This document shows positions 18,151 to 32,634 of a DNA stretch of 32,634 bases, in pieces. The stretch covers positions 1-32,634 of the forward strand of contig JAIWWG010000170.1 in NCBI GenBank assembly GCA_025435555.1, given 5' to 3'. Source of the stretch: Chytriomyces cf. hyalinus JEL632. Its lineage: Eukaryota > Chytridiomycota > Chytridiomycetes > Chytridiales > Chytriomycetaceae. The position numbers were made by a program, and so were the translations under genes. Numbering within the stretch: position 1 is the first letter of the stretch; every line of letters begins with the position of its first letter. The notes under the pieces are model-generated. The model was not told the DNA's origin and ran no database searches. It saw nothing but the letters and a program-made list of their open reading frames with translations.

Positions 18151-18819
18151 CTATGCAGTAGATCCAGTGTCAAATATAGGCCAACCTCCAACTGGAGGAA
18201 GTTGCAACCAGTCTCCACACATCAACAGATGCTTCCCACCCCACACCTTGGTTCTGCGTATGTCACCAGTGGAGTACACTTCCCTAGTTCTCTCTTCAGC
18301 AGCTCCCGTGACATCAATTTTAGTCATTGAGACCTCATCTACAATTGACAAAACTACACAGCGGATTTTTTCCTTCATAGTATGAGACAGCGGTTGTGAC
18401 TGGGCCAAGTCAATAGCAAGGTTCCTCTTAGAATGGATAGTGTGACCATCTATCATCAGTCCAGCCAGGCCCATGAATGCCATTGTCTCAATAGTGTTTG
18501 GGTGACCCCAGAGCTTTGCAAAGAGAAGCAGGGCTGCAATAACTGCTGATTTGCCTGTACCTGCCTCTCCTCCTAAGTACCCTATCAGTTGTGGCTTCAG
18601 ATTATACGGAGGGGGAGACACTTTGAGCTGTTTATCTTGGGCATCTGTCAGGTAGGCAAGCAGCAGATGCCTGGCGTAAGTTTCAAATGTGTAGTGTTGC
18701 CAGAAATCCAATTGGAAGCTTTCTGACATTTGGCCAATGCAAGCAAAATTCTGGAGGTGTGACTTTGGAGTTGGGGGTCCAGAGGGGGAAGGCAGGGTCC
18801 ATGGAACAGGCTGCAGCAA
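18151..18819 (-). pseudogene. PIF1-type helicase ATPase segment of the Helitron gene
   Basis: This is the best-preserved block of the Helitron gene, 222 codons. It holds Walker A (GGEAGTGKSAV at about 18574-18542), Walker B (VDEVSM at about 18347-18330) and the superfamily 1 motif III-like CGDWLQLPPVGG (about 18220-18185). PIF1-like helicases unwind DNA 5' to 3' and in Helitrons support rolling-circle transposition. The frame stops at 18151 (TAG). The helicase continues in other frames to 17330. Confidence 0.7.
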
Positions 18820-20168
18820 GTCATGTAGTCAGAACCTTCTCATGCTGAGGAAGGGAGGAATGGTACTTGGTAGCTCCATCCTCAAAAGAATCTGCAGATA
18901 TTGAAGATGAGCGAGGTGGGGTAATGGCTTTCAAGTAGGTATCAAGATTTGGAAAGAATGGCAGTAAAGCAACTGGAGGGGAGGGGGTAGCATGTACTGA
19001 TAGAGTTAGAGCCACATCCAGAAAGTTGTCAATTTTTTCAGAATCCTCCAAGGTTGAGCATGCAATAGAGTTTGCCAACTCTTCTTCAAATTGATGGAGT
19101 GTCATGGGATCTACTTGGTCTTATTCAATATCTCCTGGAAATGGCATGTCTTCTGCAAACAAGTCTTGCAAGGGGTGCTCATGCAGAATGTGATCTTCAT
19201 CTGATTCCTCTACTTTGTAGTCTTTTTCATTGCCTTCGTAATGATTCTGATTTAGTGCCTCATGGAGTTTGGCAGCATCTGCTAGATATGAAGGGGCAGT
19301 ATCCAAAAACTGGAGGTAGGCATCTTTGAAAGATTGACCTGAAATGAAGGGAGCAAAGATCAGAAGAAACATGAGACAGGAATATGAGATATCCTTTGGC
19401 ATACCTGGATGAAACAGGAGACCATTCATTGAATGATGTGGTTTGAACAGAATCAACAGGCTTTTGTAGTAGAACATCAATTCTTCCTCTGTCAAAGCTC
19501 TTGCCAGATTAGGTAGCTGATGTACAGTTATGATGAGGACCTTCCTTTCAGACGAAGAGTTTTTCACCCAATAATCAACATCTTTGCCTTTGGTTTTGAT
19601 TGGATGGTACAGTTCTACACAGTCAATATAACAGATATCAGCCATGCTCGGTGGACGATCCCAATACAGATGCATGGGAGACAGATCAACAGATGAACTG
19701 TTGATGGATACAAGTGGGATTGAAACATCCACAAAGTGATCAGATGAGTTTGCAGGCGAGACAGACTGCTGATCGGGATATGATGCATGAATAAGTGACA
19801 GACTTTTATAAACAAACCGGTGAGAGCTCTCAAAGAGAACCCCTTCAGTCAGAATCAGGTAGGCGGCCATAGTAGTGCAAACTTCCACCAGTTTGGTCAA
19901 GGAGTACAGGAACTTGTTGATGATGCGAAGAGAACAGTCTTCCTCCATGATGGTATCATTATCAGGGCGGTCCAAGACAGAAGACATATTCTTGCAGTAC
20001 AGGCCGATCCGCATTATTGCAGATGACTCCAAGGATTGGCACTTGAATGTATACTTGATAGTGTATGCGGTCATCTTACAAGTGCTATTTATACGGAGGA
20101 AGTAAATGAATATTTGGGATACAAGGATGGGATCAGCGGGTGGGAATGAGATGGTAACGAGGATGGTC

Positions 20169-21866: not shown

Positions 21867-22333
21867 ATAGAAGTGGACACTTGCATGAAGATAAGGATTG
21901 AGAAGTAGGTAACAGAATTATTGCTACCTTCCAACATTCCAGACACATGGCTATTTGCATCATGTCTTTCTGCACTGGTGCGAATACTCCCGGAGTTGCT
22001 TCATAAAATGTATCGTCCATGTCTTTTTCCCAGTGAACAGGATACTGCAAGTTATTGACCTTTATGTAGAATGCACTTCGGCTCAACAGCAGTCCACAAA
22101 GATGTTTGTCAAATTCCGACACGGCGTACATTTGTACAAGCTTGGCATCCAACGATTTCATCACTTCATCATCAATTTTCAGGATCCGCTTTAGATTCTG
22201 TTGAAAGTTGCGCAAAAATACAACATTGGTTCACTTGCCAAACACTTCAGAAGGACATGTACTTACAGGAAGGCACACGAATTTCCGATTTATATTTTTA
22301 TTCATTATAAATAGTGAAATAAACGTCTTTTGC

Positions 22334-23299
22334 CTATTCCAGTTTTCCGTTTAAGCTATAAAGTGGTTGGCGGCGTAATTTCACTTGCGTGATTTGTGAA
22401 ACTGCTTTGAATATTTGATGGTGGCTGTTTCTTTCAGATCGAAACATCAAGGTGAGAATCCCGAAGTCTTTAAATCTCCTGTTCACTGTCTCATGATGGG
22501 AACCCATCTGTCTCAGGTTGTGATTGTGCGCAATTGTGGCTGCAGAGGTGGGAGGCATTTTCGTAATCAGCCGCAGATCTCCAATGTAGCCTTGATCAGC
22601 TGCAATCCTCTCACCAGGTCCATTGAGGCACAGGAGAGTCTGGCAAGCCATTGTCAAGTCCAGCCACTTCCCACACAGGACCCCACCACCCACATAGACA
22701 ATTTTGCTGGTTCCCAAAGCCACTGCCACTTGATACCTGTAACCAGCTCTCTTGAACTTGTGGCTAAACAGATCCTTATCCAAAGGCCGTGCTTCCGAGA
22801 CCATCATGTCCACCCCATCAACGTAGCAGGATGGCTGTGTGCAGCTCCAGTGCTCAAACTGATCCTCAAAATGGATCTGAATTTAAATAAAGCAAATTTT
22901 AAAGTTTCGTAACAAAATTTTTGTGCAACAGAAAAATTTTACCTCATCCATGAAACCAAAACAGCTGATGCTGTAAAACACCTTGTCCCTCCAGTTGCTT
23001 TCAGATGTGTTGAACTTGGCAGCAGCGACTGCCTCAGTGGGATACACCTTGAGGTAATGAAGAGCCCAAAGGTAGTGGATCTTGAGCAACTGGTAGTTCT
23101 TGAAAAATTTTTCGACAATCAGCCAGACATCAACAGCAGAGAGGATAGTCAGGCCAAAGTGGGCAACAAAGTGGCGGTCCCAAAGGTCTCGGTGGCGGTG
23201 GTAGGACAGAGCAGACTTGCCAATGTGGGGAGAAGCAAGTTTGATGAAAGAGCCAAGGAGCTCATTCCAAATGTGTGAAGGTGTGTACTGAAGAGACAT
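22334..23299 (-). CDS. DDE transposase, PIF/Harbinger-like (copy 1)
   Basis: The exons are 23299-22943 and 22876-22334, joined in phase 0 across a 66-base intron, giving 299 aa with no stop. The ATG at 23299 is chosen over an upstream TTG. The N-terminal exon is helical (HFGLTILSAVDVW, WALHYLKVYPTE, TSESNWRDK) and probably binds DNA. Exon 2 is the DDE nuclease with D139 (CYVDGVDM), D213 (AADQGYIGD) and E248 (HHETVNRRFKDF), so all three catalytic acids are present. Family members cut the element ends for excision and integration. A TATATAAA box on the minus strand (about 23334-23327) lies about 30 bases before the start. It is about half identical to the copy-2 transposase. Confidence 0.75.
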
Positions 23300-23933
23300 G
23301 ATCAAGAAAGTCGAAAAAAGGCTGTCTTTATATACTGGTAAAGATCAATGCTGTAACAACCATCAACGTGATTTGCGCGTGACTTTGTGAGGGAGAATGC
23401 ACTGAAACATGGGCTTGTTCAAAAAAATTGTGCAAAATTATGTAAGAATTTTGGTCATGCCAAAAAACTGTAACGCAGATCAATCGGTGAAATCAGTTCA
23501 TCTGAATTCATTCATGTTTTACCACTCTCTACATCCATAAACTGTTTCTCAGGGAATTGGATGAACGTGTGAATGAATTGGTGAACAGCTATGAACCCAA
23601 CTGCACAGAATCACATATTGTAACGGTTCACAAGTTTGAACCATGAAAAAAAATTGGTGCACCAGTTCAGTTGAAAAAACACTGGTGCAGTTCCAGTGTT
23701 GTCTGAATAAATTCACTAAAATCACTAAAATCGGGTTCACAAGTATTCACTGTTTGATTTCCCAAAGTTGATGTGTTCATTCAGTGGCACCAACTGCATC
23801 TGAACAAGTCCGCTAATCTTTAAAAAAATTTTATTAAAAAAAGCCGAACACATAATTTTTTATTCCCATGCACTATAAAACCACTGCCTTTCAGTACCAA
23901 CTATTCCATTCATTCCAACAAACAATCCTGATA
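23300..23933. promoter_or_regulatory. Shared divergent promoter region, transposon copy 1
   Basis: This AT-rich stretch lies between the two divergent genes. TATATAAA (about 23327-23334, minus strand) serves the transposase, and TATAAAA (23874-23880, plus strand) lies about 54 bases before the accessory ATG at 23934. No gene lies inside. Confidence 0.5.
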
Positions 23934-24981
23934 ATGAGACGCAGTAGAGCTGAGCTACTTGGCAACCCTGACTGGAGACCCGAGCATGACATTGCCCTGT
24001 TCAAGTACCTCAAGGCCCAAGATGACGGCACCAAAACTGGCTCCCATATCAAGCAAGCCATTCCTGCCCTCGCTGCTTTTCAAGCGCCAGTCCTTAACTC
24101 AAAAATCAGGACCATTCGCAAGAAGATCCATGATTATGGTGATTGTAAGTAGAAATTTTTATTCAAAAATCTTAAAATTTTTCGATCCAAATGTTCTAAA
24201 ATGCGGTTACATTCAAGCAGTGTATGATCCACAGGCAGACAGCAAGCCCATGGATCTTTCTAGTCACCATTCACTGCTCTCTAGCAGTGGTGAGGATGGG
24301 CCTGGTGATTTAACTGGATCTCCAATCACCCCCTGGTTGACCCCACAAGGCCTACACTCCACTCCTGGTGCTCCACCGAGCCTCCAAACTAGTCCCCCAG
24401 GCATGCAAGACATTTGTCGACTGTCTGGATTGGTACCTGGATCAATCAAAAGGGTCAAAGTTGAAAGTCCATCAAAGTCTGGTGTAGTGGACTCCATGGT
24501 CTATACCAAGCCAGTCATCAAGGCCTCCCCAGTTCTGTCCACACTCCAACTCCATGAGCTGATGCGATTCAAAGATGACAAAACTGGTCTGCATCATGTG
24601 CAGATCATCTTCAAGATTCTCACTGACCATTAAATGGATTTTGATGTGTCATCAGACGGGAAGCAATTGGTGTACACTCTCACTCCAAAAACAGTTGCTG
24701 CCATTGACTTTATTGATCCCAGACACTCTGACATAAGCCACCCTCCCACCACTGCCATTGTGCAGTATTTTCACAATGATCCTGGCACAGAAGAATTCAC
24801 TTACACCATCACACTTCCTGAAGCTGTGGACTCAAACTGCATCAGTAAGAGATCTGTTTACAGAGCCATTCACACTACTGACCTTGCTGGGCACCCTGTT
24901 ACCATAATGCAAGCTGTTGCCAAAGTTCTGGTGTACATGGTTTCTGGTCAGCGCAGTGGCAATTGTGAGAGCGACTGGTGA
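23934..24981 (+). pseudogene. Accessory Myb/trihelix-like protein gene of transposon copy 1, with in-frame stop
   Basis: Exon 1 (23934-24144) and exon 2 (from 24221) join in phase 1 across GTAAGT...AAGCAG. Exon 1 encodes a small helical DNA-binding-like domain (NPDWRPEHDIALFKYLKAQ, LNSKIRTIRKKI), the place where Harbinger-type elements keep a Myb-like partner of the transposase. A Pro/Ser-rich linker follows, then a conserved C-terminal domain (LQLHELMRFKDDKTGLHHVQ to VLVYMVSGQ) ending in DW. TAA at 24631-24633 splits that domain, and the frame stays open and homologous to copy 2 beyond it up to TGA at 24979-24981. This is one point lesion in an otherwise intact gene, or a sequencing error. 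Confidence 0.65.
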
Positions 24982-25081
24982 AAAAGGGTTCAATAATTTT
25001 TTTTTTTTTTTGTGAATGTGAATGAGTCATGAAATATATGCAGTGCCTGTCTTTATTTATCCCATTCGTGTGCCTTCCTGT

Positions 25082-25262
25082 TTGTATTTTCTGAATTCAA
25101 AAAGTGAATTCGCTGAATTCATGAATTCACTAAATTCACTGTGGCCAAAAATTTAAAATTAAAAAAAATCAAAAAGCAAGCCACAAACACGTTGTCGACT
25201 TGTTTGCTCCTTCTTCCTGTTGTTTTTATTGTGCACCGTCCATATGAAGAAAACAAAGGCTA
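25082..25262. other. Spacer between the two tandem transposons
   Basis: The 181 bases contain short repeats of GAATTCA and TGAATTC and are AT-rich. No gene is seen. Confidence 0.6.
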
Positions 25263-25323
25263 GAGTGCACACCAATAAACCAAATAAACGTTTTTTATTT
25301 CAAACAAATGAAATGAGAAGTTG

Positions 25324-26258
25324 TTAATGTAATAAAGCATTGAGGGGATAAAGAGGCTCTCGCCTCAGTTTTACTTGTGTGATTTGAACTACAGCCTTGA
25401 AAATTCGATAGTGATCATCTCTGCTCAATCGATAGAGTCCATGCAATATGTGAAAGTCCTTCAGGTGTGCATTGACTGTTTCGTGTCTTGCACCCATCTG
25501 TTTTAGGTTGTGGTTATGATCCCTGATGTCAGCGTCACGACCTTTTAACTTGGTCATGATCTGATCATCACCACGGTAACCTTGATCAGCTGCCACCTTT
25601 TCTTTGGCTCCAATCTCACGAAGAATACCATGACGAACCATTTTGAGGTCTGGCCACAAGCCACAAGGAACTCCTCCATCAACCCAGACTATCTTGGAGC
25701 ACCCAAGAGCTGTTGCAACCTGATAACGGTATCCAGCATGGTTGAACTTGTGACTGAAGAGGTCAGCATCGTGTACACAGGTCTCGGTGACAAGGACATC
25801 AGTACCATCAACGTAACAGGATGGTTGGAGGTGGTTCCAGTTCTCAAAACGATCGTCGAAATGAATCTGTGAAAAATTAAATTTTAATCTCCAAAATTTC
25901 CAAAATTTTTTCAAATCACCTCATCCATTTCTTGAAAGCAATCCATTGCCAACTTCACTTTCACACGCCAATTTGTTTCAGATGTGCTGAACTTCGATGC
26001 AGCAGTCGACTTGGTTGGATGGACTTTGAGGAAGTAAAGGGCCCACAGAAAGCACACCTTTTTTAAACGAACAGCCCCAAACGATTCGTGAACAATTTCC
26101 CACACGTCAACTGCTGAGTCCACACTCAGTCCAAAATGGGCAACAAAGCGCCGTTTCCAAATGACTGGATGTCTGTTGAAAGAGTCGGCTGACTTGCCAA
26201 TGATTGGCGCTGCTCTGACAATGATCGAGGCAAGTTCATCATCCCAACTGAACACCAT
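25324..26258 (-). CDS. DDE transposase, PIF/Harbinger-like (copy 2)
   Basis: The exons are 26258-25920 and 25866-25324, joined in phase 0 across a 53-base intron (GTGATT...TTCACAG), giving 293 aa. The ATG at 26258 follows a TTG in the same frame. The catalytic residues are D133 (CYVDGTDV), D207 (AADQGYRGD) and E242 (RHETVNAHLKDF), with the same 74 and 35 residue spacing as copy 1. The N-terminal exon again carries HFGLSVDSAVDVW and WALYFLKVHPTK. The intron position is identical in both copies. The open frame and complete acid triad suggest it could be active. Confidence 0.76.
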
Positions 26259-26960
26259 TTCATTCAATTCTATTGAACATGAGCAAGCAGACTGTATTTC
26301 AAATGCAACAAGCCCTTAATTGCAAATGACAAATAAATGATCCATGCCACTTTGTCAGATTTAAGAATTTGCATTAAAAAAAAGGGGGGGACTTTATTTA
26401 CACAAGCCCAAATCAAACGAAGAAATGTTTTGTTCCGGATTCAAACCGTTTCTTCCGGAATCAAACAAAAATTTTCAAAATCAATGAAATTCAAAGAAAT
26501 CAAATGAAATTCAACAAAATCAAACGGGGAATCAAACAGACACACAGGATTTATGCTAACCTGATTCATTTGCTCTCAGTAAGGCACAGAGGCAAACCAT
26601 TGCAGTGATACGTATGCAGGGTGCGTGTCAACAACAGCATATTTAATTCAATAAAAACTGATTTTTTTCCAAGCGATGAACTTCAAAAAAGAGCGCATAT
26701 GGTCAAATGGTGTCATGCCACAAAGCGCTGCGCGCTCACAGTGCTGCAAAGAAAACCACAGCCGATTCACTTAAATCGCATATTTTTTTATTTGTTTGTT
26801 TGTGGTTTTTGTTTTTCTCTGCCCAACAACCCTTCCCAACCATCTCTCCATCTGATTAAATGAATTTTTTGAAATTGCTTGAATACTTATGCAAGGTGGC
26901 AAGCAACTTATATAACATAACAGATGCTCACCTCCCCAAGGAATAAAAACAGACAACACA
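26259..26960. promoter_or_regulatory. Shared divergent promoter region, transposon copy 2
   Basis: This lies between the divergent transposase and accessory genes. It is AT-rich with repeated AAATCAA-type words (26440-26530). A TTATATAACA site near 26909 precedes the accessory ATG at 26961 by about 50 bases. No other gene is supported. Confidence 0.4.
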
Positions 26961-28003
26961 ATGGCACCAAAGCAGATCAATGAAGTGGAAGCCAAGTCGT
27001 GGGGGAAGGACCATGACATAGCAGTTTACAACTGGATGCTTGAAAACGACGTTGAGGATGATGCAGGCAACCTGCCAACTGGCAAGCACCTGCTTACTGA
27101 TACCCCAGCACTGAAATCATGGAGCTCGAGCACCCTGAACTCAAAGATGAAAACAATCAGAAGACGTATGAAGGAAAAAAAAGGTGAGGTTCTTGGCATT
27201 TGTGCTGTTTATTTTGTTCAAAACATTTTTCTAAAATTTTTCAATTTGGTGGGAAATTTTGCAATTTGCAGATTGGCACCCATTAAACGACAAGCTCCCA
27301 ATGCGGTTGGGATTGGAGTCAACAGTGAAGAAATTGAACGCAGAGGAAGAGAGCGACAATCCTCTCTATGATCCTGAATACATGCCAATAAGTTCAATAC
27401 ACCAGTCGGGTGGTAGCAGCACTCCAAAGCCCTTCAAACCCAGCACGAGCCAACCTCAGAGTGCCTGCCAAACGTGCCAAGCTCGTGAGCCCATCCAAGC
27501 CAACCCTTTCACCTGCCAGCAACTACACCAAGGATGGCGTACGTGCTTCCCAGGTTGAAAGTACCCTTCGGTTACACGAAATCATGAGGTACGATGATCG
27601 ACAAACTGGCCAGCACTACATCCAACTCTACATCAGGCTGCTCACTGACATGAACTGCTCTTGCAAGATAATCTCAGATGGTCGCCAGCTCCTGTACACG
27701 ATCAGGCCCAAGTATGTTGATGCAGGTGCTTATGTTGATCCACAGCACCCAGAGATCACTTACCAGCCAACTGCTGCCTTTGTCAACTACTTCCACACTG
27801 ACACTGGGGCAGAGGAGTTTCGATACCTGATCAACTTACCCGATGCTGTTGACTTCAACCCTACCATGTCTCGATTTGTCTACCGCTTAATCAAAGTGGA
27901 TGATGTTAATGGGAATGTGGTGGAGATAGAGCAGAAGGTGGGCAGGGTGTTAGTTTATGCTATTTCTGGGCAGCAGGACGGGTGTATGATTGGGGATTGG
28001 TGA
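26961..28003 (+). pseudogene. Accessory Myb/trihelix-like protein gene of transposon copy 2, frameshifted
   Basis: Exon 1 (26961-27183) joins exon 2 (from 27272) in phase 1 across GTGAGG...TTGCAG. The intron phase and place match copy 1. Exon 1 encodes the helical domain (SWGKDHDIAVYNWMLEN, TLNSKMKTIRRRMK). The exon-2 frame holds until about 27440 and then must shift by one base to enter the conserved C-terminal domain (LRLHEIMRYDDRQTGQHYIQ to VLVYAISGQ, ending GDW, stop at 28001-28003). That domain is continuous here, unlike copy 1. The damage therefore differs between the copies. An unseen intron at the shift is possible but lacks clear splice sites. Confidence 0.62.
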
Positions 28004-28099
28004 TCGTGTCGCCTCTTTTTTTTTTTTTTCAATATATTTACGTAAATAAAACTTTATTTGGTGTGCACTCCTGGGCGAAGTTATTGAATCTGTCCAAAA

Positions 28100-31000
28100 A
28101 TGCCAATCCAACTTCCATGGACCATCCTGAAGTTTCGGTCAAAGTCAACCGGCGGAAACCGTACTGGAAATGGACTGCATATGTTCAGGCGGAGGAATGA
28201 AGAGTCTGTCGCTGACGACGCTGTCCAGACTAGTCCAGCAATGGTGCGCCAAGTGCGCAGGCACAGACGGAATTCGCAACCAACCTCATCACGAGAAGCC
28301 CTCGAAACAACCGGAGATGCTTCTTCAAAGGTGGTGAGGGCTGCGCTGGAAGGCGAGTGGATCTGTCAGCAACGAAAGAATAGTCACGACTCATTCATCA
28401 GGTTTGGGGAACATGTGTTTGCAGTCACTTAACCAGAGCATTTCTTCTCATCGTCGATCGTTTCGAAATGCAGCTATCGCGTGGCAGTACATGCGCACAT
28501 TGTTTCCGCAGTCCATTCCGCCATCTGTGAGGCTGACTCTTCGCATCACATGTTTTGGGACAAGCTCTGTCTTGTTTCAGCAGACGAGGTACGAGCGAAG
28601 TCATGTTTAGATATAAATATTACATGCAGTATCGAACAGCTTACCGCATTTGCAGTGGGAGGAAGACGGTTTCGTTCGCGCTCTTTCCGTGGCTTCGGTC
28701 GCTTTCCTCATTGTGACGCCATCGATTCTGTCGGACCCAAACAGCACACATCTACTCTCAAATTCGAACGATAATGTGTTATTGGAGGTGAGCATTTTTT
28801 TGTGTTGCCCCATTCAAATAAAACACTGACTAAGAATGCCGAAAATCAGTGGGAACTCGCGATCGACCATCACCTCAACAACCAATGCACGGTTGTACCC
28901 ATTTTCGTATCTTCATCTCCAGACACTTTGTTTTCGAAAGAGAGTTTGGCAATCAAGGACATGAACTCGTATCATACCCACTCGTACTATGAAAAATCGG
29001 GGTTGAAACCAAAGCGAACAATCTCTGAAACATTGGACGTAGTTTTGAGCCTGCGCGGAATTTGTATCAATCTGCAAGAACATGGCGAATTTTCAGATGA
29101 CGCCAAAACTGCAACGATTCTTAATCCAACGGGTGTTTCCGCAATGCTTCAACTGTATAGGATATCATCGAATAGAAATGACGCGCAAGCTCGAATACCC
29201 GATGTGAGCGCTCATGATTCTTTGAAAATGCTGTTGGGAGTCGAGAGTCCATTCGAACTGTGGTATTCTGACGTTTCAGCAGCTAAGGATGAGAATCGTA
29301 TTCCAAAGTTGAACGCGGAAAATTCATTGCTTGGTGTGGTCAAGAGAGATCTGCGCATTTGGATAGACAGTCCCAACACGGATGTGATCGTCATTCCAAC
29401 TGACCGCTTTATCGAAGTTTGCGAAGGCAGCAGTTCGAAAATTGATTCACGCGCAACAATGGTATGACAAAACCACTTCAATCCAGGCAATCACACAATA
29501 ACGTGTACGTTTTTTAAAGCCTCCTGCAGCTCATTTAATGGATGTTCTCACACATTTACAAGTTCACAACAAGTTTCTTGGCCTCCTTTCTCTGTCATCA
29601 AAGCCGCACACCATCAAATCCTCGGTGCTTCAGTTCATCTACTCCCTATGCCATTACAACTCTGCATATTCGAAATTCATCTTGGACTCTGCTAGCGAAA
29701 TACCGTCTTTCAACGTTACATCTTTGATGGCAAAACTTATATACGAAGCACTTGAGAGAAAACTTATTGCGAATGAACCGTCAATCATCTTGGTTGAATT
29801 ACTTTCAGACCATGAAACCTCCAACCATCATGCGCTGAAAAAGAATGAACTTCAGGTGCTGAGTTGGGTCATTAAACTGTTTGAAGGTCGTGCCAAGATT
29901 GTCATTTCAGGGGTCAACTCGCTTGTGCCTTGGAACTTCCTTGGCGAACATTTTGCTGATCGTCTTGCAGAATATCAATGGGAAGATGCGCTGGAGGAGA
30001 GTGCGAAGATTGCTGCCCGATCTGTTGGTGGGACATTGGACTTATCCGCGGTTCCTGGATCCGTAACCAAACCGCTTGGTGATGCTGATAAAGAACAGGG
30101 AAGCAGCCTATCCGCCGACTTTGAAAACTATGACCCGTCGCTGCCTGCAAAATTTGCAAAGCAAGACACATTCCTGATAATCTGTGGACCTTCAGAAGAC
30201 GATCAAGTAATTGCGCATCGACTGCGACTAGAACTCAATCAAGGGTCTTCATTGGCGATTTTGGTAAACGAAAATGTGGCCTGGACGAAATTCGAAGCGT
30301 TCTTGAATGCGACAAATCTTGTGATTGCGGTGGTTTCAGATCAACTGGTTCACAAGTTGTATTCCATGGAAATGCCCGATAAATTTGTGAAAATGGTATG
30401 TTCGAAACTTGTTTCTGCCTTCGATCGCAATTATGTCTTACCGGCGGTCCCCTTCAGATTCGGCTTGCACTTGATTTCGCGGAGCAAAAAGAATATGCTT
30501 TTATCCAAGCTGCATCATCAGACAGAGAGCGCCGCCGCAAAGACATTGTGAAAATTCTTCCTTTGCTTGTTGGATCTCCAACACGCCCATTCAGCTCGTT
30601 TGGAGGGATGATTCGTGTCAAGTCAGTTCGAGAGCCAATTTCACAGCTTTTCAAAATCCAAGGAGAGCATATTCATAAAGAAAACATTCCTGCGTAAGTT
30701 GGTTCAAAACTAAAAACCATACGTTCTCTCAACTCTAAGTGTTCTTTTGCGAATCGCATAGTACGGCCATTCGAATCACACAGATAAGGCAATTCCATCT
30801 GCAGTTGACTGCAGCAGATATGTTTGACACCCTGCAATCGGGACTTTCGGCAACTGAACTTCAAGACTTGCGAAACTGGCTGCTTCCAGTTGATGAACTT
30901 GAAAAGGCGCAACGTTCGTCTCTCATGCGTCAGTATGAGCCAGGAACTCGCGGTTGGCTGAATAAACGCGTCATTGACTGGGTCCAAACCAGTGAAAAGC

Positions 31001-32634
31001 GCGTCCTTTGGCTTCAAGGGAAGGCAGGTGTTGGAAAGGTGAGTTGCATTGATTGTATCATGCGACAAAAAGCATTAAGTACGTGTATAATGTCCCCACA
31101 GTCCGTCATGGCAGCTCTTGTGACTCAAACACTGGCGGACCGTCGAATGCTAGCCGCAACATTCTTTTGCAAATCCAACAACCAATCTCTAAATAGCGCT
31201 CGAAACATTGTCCGCACAATTGCGTTCCACCTCTGCACATGGCAACCAGCTTTTGGCCGAGTACTTTTGAAAATCAAAAAAGAATTGGACGCTGATTTTT
31301 TCACGAGCCCCGTGTCAATGATTTTTCAGCGACTGGTTCTTCAACCGCTTCAAGGATTTTCTGAATTCATGAGAGCGCAAGGAATGGAAAACAAGTTGAC
31401 AAGGGCAGTGATTGTTTTGGACGCGTTGGATGAATGCGGGACTTTGAACAAGCGGAGCGAGTTGCTCAATATTTTCAGGTTTCAATGCAACGCTTTGCCG
31501 TCGTTTGTAAAATTCTTTGTTACAAGTCGTCCGGAGCCTGATATTGTTGCGGCGTTTGAGACGTTGGATCAGGAAATGATTATTCCTTCAGACGCCGAAA
31601 ATTTGGAAGACGCCTTGATTGCTGCGAAAAATCGGCTGCACTCTATACAACCATCCATGGACTCTGAAAATCTGGACAAATTCGCAAACATGCTTGTGGA
31701 CAAATCGGGGGGCCTGTTTATTTGGCTGATTTTAGCCCTGTCAAACTTGGCGCAATCAGGCGTTGTTTCGGAAATCTCGATAGATCAGATTCAAGTCGGC
31801 ATGTCAGACACGTACTCTGAAACGTTCAAAAGCATGTTCCGAAACGCAACAGACCCTGTCTTGACTGCTTTAATCACGGCCATCACGATGCTTCTAGAGC
31901 CGCTGTCTCCTGTTGATCTGGCGTCGCTGCTTGGAGTGGATTTGAGGCAGATTCAATATTGTTTATCAGTGTTACAGCCAGTGCTTGGTGGGCATTCAAC
32001 AAACGAAAGGGAACCTGTTTCGTTTTTGCACAAGTCTGTGGTGGATTATCTGACGGGAGCTGGAAAATCTGCCGATGCAACATCCGAAACGATTCTTTCG
32101 CATTATGCCGTTGATCCCAGGTTTACAGTTCGAAAGCAGGTCGGCGATCTTTTGTTGGGCAGTCGCTGCCTCGAAATTCTCAATTCGAAACTTTCGGCGG
32201 AACCTCCACTCCACGAGGCTGGACATTTTGGTCAATATGCATCTCCTTTATTTCAAGGCTCCAGAGTCATTTTGTCCAAATCATTTTCGAATCGATATTT
32301 TGGAAACAAGTACACCGCAAGAGCCCTTGAAGTTGGAACGGCTTCAAAGTTTTTCACACCTGACCTTGTGCATGCGTGTAGATTCTGGGCAAGCTATGTT
32401 ACTCTGGAGAATGAAAGCGAGCTGCTGCATCTCCTACAAAGTTTCACTGAGGGCAACATTCTGCATTGGATTGAAGCCATGATTTACTTGCAGCAATTTG
32501 ACCAAATATCACCCATTGCATCATCCGTTTCCGTACTGCTCATGAAACATGGTGCGAGTGCGGACAAGACGGGCTTGCAATCCATCGGGCACCTGTTCCA
32601 CGACGTGGCTGTGATGGTTCAACGGTTTTCCACC
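28100..32634 (+). CDS. TIR - TIR-like - NACHT NLR protein (3' end outside window)
   Basis: The exons are 28100-28401, 28474-28588, 28656-28787, 28850-29461, 29520-30395, 30458-30693, 30762-31038 and 31102 onward. All join in frame to 1361 codons with no stop. A TIR domain starts at residue 97 (SFISYRV 98-104, FWDKLCLV, WEED 140-143 holding the likely catalytic Glu, DNVLLE then WELAI across an intron, VVPIF 198-202). Residues 605-718 form a second TIR-like fold (FLIICGPSEDD, WTKFEAFL, LVIAVVSD, ILPLLVG). A NACHT follows, introduced by EPGTRGWL, with P-loop GKAGVGKS (844-851), Walker B IVLDALDECG and TSRPE (991-995), then HACRFWA near 1274 as in fungal NACHT proteins. Known TIR domains cleave NAD or signal, and NACHT drives oligomerisation. 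I infer an immune or cell-death receptor. The exact N-terminus is the weakest part. Confidence 0.8.

What the first reader, a model, noticed from the sequence alone, without database searches (positions are those of the whole stretch)
28100..32634. Spliced TIR-NACHT receptor in a fungal-type genome
Seen: assembling eight exons by GT-AG rules gives one continuous frame whose first domain has the TIR signature order (SFISYRV, FWDKLCLV, WEED, DNVLLEWELAI, VVPIF) and whose later part is a canonical fungal NACHT with P-loop, LDALDECG and TSRPE. Known: TIR-STAND fusions are classic in plants and bacteria, while fungal NACHT NLRs mostly carry HeLo, Goodbye, PNP_UDP or lipase-like N-termini, and TIR is rare. 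Inference: an NAD-consuming, self/non-self or cell-death receptor in an early-diverging fungus.
Basis: partly seen in the sequence, partly recalled or inferred. Interest (0 to 1): 0.85.

Follow-up and report, generated by a model that had tools for sequence, protein, structure and literature searches.

The report
Fungal TIR-NACHT immune-type receptor gene, truncated
The window ends inside a gene for an immune-type receptor of a flagellated fungus that joins a diverged TIR domain to a NACHT switch; such receptors have been reported in chytrid fungi, so it is a new member of a known but little-studied kind, with an unexplained extra middle part of about 500 residues.

Summary
Eight exons joined at seven GT-AG introns (58-72 nt) give one open frame of 1361 residues, cut off by the contig end at 32634. 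The NACHT is certain (NPHP3_N E=2.6e-27, NACHT 2.2e-7). The TIR is diverged: Pfam TIR_2 E=3.1e-4 for the domain alone, 21.7 bits against a cut-off of 28, but only 1 of 1000 shuffles fits a TIR profile from the same genome as well. A 99.1% identical copy on contig C105 shows fewer amino-acid changes than expected (p=0.003), so the joined frame is or was coding. The genome has five other TIR-NACHT genes (three in tandem on C187, one each on C166 and C165); the one C187 copy read in full ends in WD40 repeats. Chitin synthases and IFT57 fit a zoosporic fungus. TIR in NLRs of Chytridiomycota is in print (PMC9815663, passage). About 500 residues between TIR and NACHT have no counterpart in those relatives; by eye they resemble a decayed NACHT plus a decayed TIR, but no test supported that. 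A DDE_Tnp_4 element ends about 30 bp before the ATG, so expression is doubtful.

The parts
28100..28401 (+). exon 1 (aa 1-100; basic N-terminus and start of TIR, ends phase 2)
   Evidence: open frame and GT donor; reads SFI|S
28474..28588 (+). exon 2 (TIR, YRV...FWDKLCLVSADE)
28656..28787 (+). exon 3 (TIR, WEEDGF...NVLLE)
28850..29461 (+). exon 4 (end of TIR WELAI...VVPIF, then start of unassigned region)
29520..30395 (+). exon 5 (unassigned region, 292 aa, single frame)
30458..30693 (+). exon 6 (unassigned region)
30762..31038 (+). exon 7 (lead-in to NACHT and P-loop GKAGVGK)
31102..32634 (+). exon 8 (rest of NACHT, following helical part, linker), cut by the contig end
28388..28939 (+). TIR domain (aa 97-213) with three introns inside
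   Evidence: Pfam TIR_2 aa 99-216, E=0.004 in the whole protein, 3.1e-4 alone, below cut-off; 1 of 1000 shuffles reaches its score on the own-genome TIR profile
29021..30691 (+). about 517 residues without a recognised domain (aa 241-757); possible decayed NACHT (aa ~330-590) and decayed TIR (aa ~598-757)
   Evidence: by eye; not supported by tests
30946..31656 (+). NACHT domain with P-loop, LDALDEC and TSRPE (aa 820-1035)
   Evidence: NPHP3_N 2.6e-27, NACHT 2.2e-7
32323..32634 (+). linker (aa 1258-1361) that in the C187 relative read in full leads into WD40 repeats
   Evidence: aa 1260-1326 match C187:92133-92333, 31% identity, E=4.5e-8; WD40 follows there
25263..28070 (.). DDE_Tnp_4 transposon (transposase on -, two open stretches on +) ending about 30 bp before the receptor's ATG; ends set by eye from inverted repeats
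   Evidence: similarity to C105 starts at 28078

Best explanation
An NLR (STAND) receptor gene of a zoosporic fungus: N-terminal TIR, long middle region, NACHT switch and, beyond the contig end, most likely WD40 repeats. Working model: the repeats sense a ligand or a modified self protein, the NACHT exchanges nucleotide and oligomerises, and the TIRs are brought together and act as an NAD-cleaving or signalling unit that triggers defence or cell death. Shown here: the open spliced frame under constraint, the NACHT, a diverged TIR, and TIR-NACHT (in one case with WD40) in relatives. Inferred: WD40 in this gene, oligomerisation, NADase activity, cell death.
For: Continuous frame over 8 exons; NACHT and TIR_2 matches; TIR fits the own-genome TIR profile, 1 of 1000 shuffles as good; a profile of that TIR group, the window TIR being 1 of 8 rows, matches solved TIRs such as Roq1 (1.1e-12), L6 (1.2e-10) and SARM1 (4e-9); constraint against C105; one C187 relative with TIR_2 1.7e-16, NPHP3_N 1.1e-24 and nine WD40 stretches and a shared linker just before WD40; in C187, C166 and C165 the end of the TIR lies in one open frame with the NACHT.
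Against: No transcripts. TIR_2 score below Pfam's curated cut-off (21.7 against 28 bits); hhalign gives the TIR only 6.7% probability against the own-genome profile (E=0.0054). The 3' end is missing. A transposon ends about 30 bp before the ATG and the 5' flank of C105 is not found in the window, so this copy may have lost its promoter. The C105 copy carries three one-base insertions in exons, so one or both copies may be dying genes (or assembly errors).
Confidence: 0.78

Rival explanations
1. Two adjacent genes: a TIR protein (exons 1-4 or 1-6) and a separate NACHT-WD40 protein, joined only in the model.
For: No transcript data; the residues between them carry no recognised domain.
Against: No stop across seven introns; the middle region has 5 synonymous and 8 amino-acid changes and the part before the NACHT 3 and 0 relative to C105, few but of coding type; in three relatives the end of the TIR and the NACHT share one open frame.
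Confidence: 0.12
2. A decaying gene: the C80 copy is cut off from its promoter by a transposon, the C105 copy is frameshifted; neither makes a receptor now.
For: Transposon end about 30 bp before the ATG; similarity to C105 stops at 28078 and the C105 upstream flank is not found in the window beyond matches of 21 bases or fewer; three one-base insertions in C105 exons.
Against: The C80 frame is fully open; overall changes show constraint (p=0.0028); single-base insertions near contig ends can be assembly errors.
Confidence: 0.3
3. A tandemly doubled TIR-NACHT unit with complementary decay: active TIR, dead NACHT, dead TIR, active NACHT.
For: By eye: the order of helices and strands in aa 330-590 follows a NACHT (strand DVIVIP, no P-loop, strand IILVELL, strand IVISGV), and aa 598-757 sits where the relatives have their TIR. 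HMM, hhalign and the core whole-profile run pick the same register around IILVELL, without significance. Introns of phase 0 lie at like places in both halves: NVLLE|WELAI and KFVKM|IRLAL.
Against: HMM score -1.6 bits, beaten by at least 15 of 2000 shuffles; whole-profile score reached by 118 (core), 27 (wide, in another register) and 333 (Walker B to sensor) of 1000 shuffles; second TIR reached by 183 and 212, and with checked rows 111, of 1000 shuffles; hhalign probabilities 0.17% and 0.19%; no Pfam TIR or NACHT match there; direct comparison of the halves reached by 72 and 980 of 1000 shuffles; structure model of exon 5 unusable, pLDDT 37.
Confidence: 0.18

Closest known systems
TIR-NACHT genes of the same genome (C187, three tandem copies, one read in full and ending in WD40; C166; C165)
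   Same: TIR N-terminal, NPHP3_N-type NACHT; C187 also shares the linker before WD40
   Different: About 223 (C187) and 202 (C166) residues from the SY motif of the TIR to the P-loop, against 746 here; their TIRs pass the Pfam cut-off and are of the WxD..MSG or similar type, ours of the FISYR..FWDKxCL type
TIR-containing NLRs reported in Chytridiomycota (PMC9815663, passage read)
   Same: TIR plus NLR in a fungus, probably the same lineage
   Different: The passage gives no architecture or sequence to compare; ours has a long extra middle region
HET-NACHT-WD40 receptors (HET-E/HET-D of Podospora; PMC4986451, PMC10197012, passages read)
   Same: NACHT plus WD40 with an N-terminal domain remotely related to TIR
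   Different: No HET match in Pfam; ours is a TIR
Plant TIR-NB-LRR receptors such as Roq1, L6, RPP1
   Same: TIR plus nucleotide switch; the own-genome TIR profile matches their solved TIRs
   Different: NACHT instead of NB-ARC; no LRR in the part that can be read
Single TIR exons of the same genome on C37, C46:6235 and C204
   Same: Same TIR type (FISYRV, FRDRDCL), 29% identity to the window TIR
   Different: Only a TIR exon seen; no NACHT match listed next to it

Membership tests
fungal NLR (NACHT STAND) | NACHT with P-loop, Walker B acidic motif and sensor motif | tested here: met
   NPHP3_N 96.5 bits (cut-off 24.8), NACHT 31.3 bits (26.7), motifs at aa 844, 955, 990
fungal NLR (NACHT STAND) | C-terminal superstructure-forming repeats | not testable with these tools
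   Contig ends at 32634; the C187 relative with the same linker has WD40
TIR domain | Sequence homology to TIR profiles | tested here: met
   TIR_2 E=3.1e-4 alone but 21.7 bits, below the cut-off of 28; 1 of 1000 shuffles on the own-genome profile; 22 and 28 of 1000 with the first, partly mistyped rows; hhalign E=0.0054, probability 6.7%
TIR domain | Glutamate between strands C and D needed for NADase activity (PMC7075850, passage) | tested here: inconclusive
   WEED (aa 140-143) lies in the right stretch and aligns with a glutamate of the C187 TIR, but which residue matches depends on the alignment; the SARM1 position compared by eye is recalled
plant TIR-NB-LRR | NB-ARC switch | tested here: not met
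   NB-ARC not among the 10 families listed up to E=1; NACHT instead
HET-NACHT-WD40 (HNWD) | HET domain | tested here: not met
   HET not among the 10 families listed up to E=1
doubled TIR-NACHT unit | Second TIR and second NACHT recognisable in aa 241-757 | tested here: not met
   Not significant

The most novel reading that the evidence does not exclude
The protein is a fused duplication of a whole TIR-NACHT receptor in which each half kept one working module: a first unit with a live TIR and a dead NACHT, and a second unit with a dead TIR and a live NACHT. A one-chain receptor with a built-in pseudo-receptor, comparable to a sensor-helper pair fused into one protein, would be a new NLR architecture.
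Probability: 0.18. Interest if true: 0.68.

Novelty: new member of a known kind. Interest (0 to 1): 0.42.

Why it matters
TIR-NLRs are studied mainly in plants and bacteria; fungi are better known for HET, HeLo and lipase-like N-termini. A flagellated fungus with a small family of intron-bearing TIR-NACHT genes, three of them in tandem, gives a concrete set of sequences to test whether NAD-cleaving TIR immunity runs through a fungal lineage, and whether HET domains descend from it.

Tried and rejected
Extension beyond 32634: impossible, the window is the whole contig; only C105 carries the gene again and it ends earlier, at the place of aa 1277. Single-sequence search of the TIR and of the second TIR-like part against solved structures gave only chance matches. 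PADLOC gave nothing for three pieces. Pfam PDU_like (0.003) and MGDG_synth (0.13) in the middle region are below their cut-offs and taken as chance. Structure prediction of exon 5 alone, pLDDT 37, not used for a fold search. Middle region against the whole genome up to E=10: 10 matches, all on C80 or C105 (6 candidates scored). Literature: 'fungal nlr' + 'nacht' + 'tir domain' + 'wd40' gave 7 papers; 'tir domain' + 'early-diverging fungi' + 'nlr' 0; 'tir domain' + 'chytrid' + 'nacht' 5; 'chytridiomycota' + 'tir domain' + 'nod-like receptor' 1; a five-term NADase search 1, not opened. I do not claim that the doubled architecture is absent from print; no search was made for it.

Full report
What is there. 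The window is a complete contig, C80, 32,634 bases, of an unnamed assembly of 37.8 Mb in 242 contigs. From 28100 to the contig end, eight exons join at seven GT-AG introns of 58-72 nt into 1361 codons without a stop. Pfam on the spliced protein gives NPHP3_N at aa 820-993 (E=2.6e-27) and NACHT at 838-995 (2.2e-7), both above the curated cut-offs, and TIR_2 at aa 99-216 with E=0.004; the TIR region alone gives 3.1e-4, 21.7 bits against a cut-off of 28. Seven single open stretches scanned apart (six of them of this gene) gave NPHP3_N and NACHT in one and no TIR in any.

Is the joined frame real? A second copy lies on contig C105, 99.07% identical from window 28078 to 32384, where C105 ends. In the joined frame it differs by 15 synonymous and 17 amino-acid changes; the sites available (948 and 3135) would give about 25 amino-acid changes of 32, p=0.0028. 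By part (synonymous/amino-acid): N-terminus 3/6, TIR 1/2, middle 5/8, part before the NACHT 3/0, NACHT onward 3/1. These are small counts; the total speaks for coding. C105 has three one-base insertions in exons 1, 5 and 6 and one missing base in an intron.

Is the TIR a TIR? Eleven TIR stretches from nine other contigs of the genome, each piece found by script in its locus, were aligned; the window TIR reaches a whole-profile score that 1 of 1000 shuffles of itself reaches. An earlier run with partly mistyped rows gave 22 and 28 of 1000 for two profile lengths. hhalign gives E=0.0054 but a probability of only 6.7%, so the comparison is supportive, not overwhelming. As a caution, the middle region of the same protein reached 28 of 1000 on the same profile. 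A profile of the window TIR with seven of those rows matches 60 distinct solved sequences at E<=0.001, led by Roq1, a TIR domain protein, L6 and other TIRs including SARM1. The window TIR is 29% identical to the TIR on C37, which is itself above the Pfam cut-off.

Relatives in the genome. TIR_2 matches 15 places and NPHP3_N 25 places at E<=0.001. On C187 three tandem genes have TIR_2 followed by NPHP3_N; the one read in full (L076) has TIR_2 1.7e-16, NPHP3_N 1.1e-24 and nine WD40 stretches. The other two share the linker match, but their WD40 was not looked at. C166 (TIR_2 3e-14) and C165 (2.5e-7) also have TIR before NACHT. In C187, C166 and C165 the end of the TIR lies in one open frame with the NACHT. 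C57 has a very weak TIR match (0.14), then NPHP3_N and WD40. Residues 1260-1326 of the window protein match the C187 stretch just before WD40 (31%, E=4.5e-8), so WD40 after 32634 is likely, not shown.

The unexplained middle. From the SY motif of the TIR to the P-loop there are 746 residues here, 223 in C187 and 202 in C166 (possible introns inside the C187 and C166 stretches not excluded). Residues 241-757 have no recognised domain and match only their own two copies in the genome. By eye they look like a NACHT without P-loop and a TIR without its motifs, in the order TIR, NACHT, TIR, NACHT, with phase-0 introns at like places in both halves. No test I ran supported this: pairwise comparison (72 of 1000 shuffles as good, in another register; TIR against TIR 980 of 1000), HMM (-1.6 bits, while at least 15 of 2000 shuffles scored 1.7 or more), whole-profile scores (118, 27 and 333 of 1000), second TIR (183 and 212, then 111 of 1000), hhalign (0.17% and 0.19%). 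The structure model of exon 5 has pLDDT 37. It stays a hypothesis.

State of the gene. A DDE_Tnp_4 element with inverted ends (GAGTGCACACCAA(A)TAAA) occupies about 25263-28070; no target-site duplication was sought. Similarity to C105 begins at 28078, 22 bases before the ATG, and the 423 bases upstream in C105 are not found in the window beyond matches of 21 bases or fewer. So the C80 copy may have lost its own promoter, while the C105 copy is frameshifted, unless these are assembly errors.

Organism. Chitin_synth_1 matches 18 places above the cut-off and none of 14 control genomes; IFT57, a flagellar transport protein, matches three stretches on one contig above the cut-off, and 3 of 14 controls only below it. 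The controls are prokaryotes, so they do not separate fungi from other eukaryotes. The pair fits a zoosporic fungus; the species was not identified.

Literature (passages read, not whole papers). [quoted passage not shown] PMC4986451 describes HET as remotely related to TIR. PMC7075850 describes the glutamate critical for NADase activity. PMC12881547 passages treat HET/TIR proteins in fungal cell death. So the kind is known; the gene is a new member with an unexplained middle region.

Noticed in passing
window 22260-25086 and about 25263-28070: Two neighbouring DDE_Tnp_4 transposons of similar layout, each with a transposase stretch on the minus strand and plus-strand open stretches; the first has 23-nt inverted ends 91% complementary.
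   Followed up: partly
window 18151-18828 (-): Fragment of a PIF1-like helicase (E=1e-16), possibly from a Helitron.
   Followed up: no
G000 C187:81000-95000 (L076 and neighbours): Three tandem TIR-NACHT genes, two of them with identical match scores; a kinase-like reading frame (FRDLKPANVLL, by eye) lies just before the TIR gene in L076.
   Followed up: partly
G000 C177:70136 and C109:431 (L026, L027): NACHT genes whose N-terminal part contains an EF-hand-looking stretch (VDVNMDGYVDVKEF in C177, by eye), an N-terminal partner I do not recall from fungal NLR lists.
   Followed up: no
G000 C37:67998, C46:6235, C204:209549 (L014-L016): Three copies of one TIR exon with equal scores, each within about 7 kb of a contig end.
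   Followed up: no
G000 C51, C53, C84: A separate group of NACHT genes with another, shared N-terminal region (EYxELPxQFQ..., by eye), all on contigs under 65 kb; a related NACHT stretch lies on C199.
   Followed up: no
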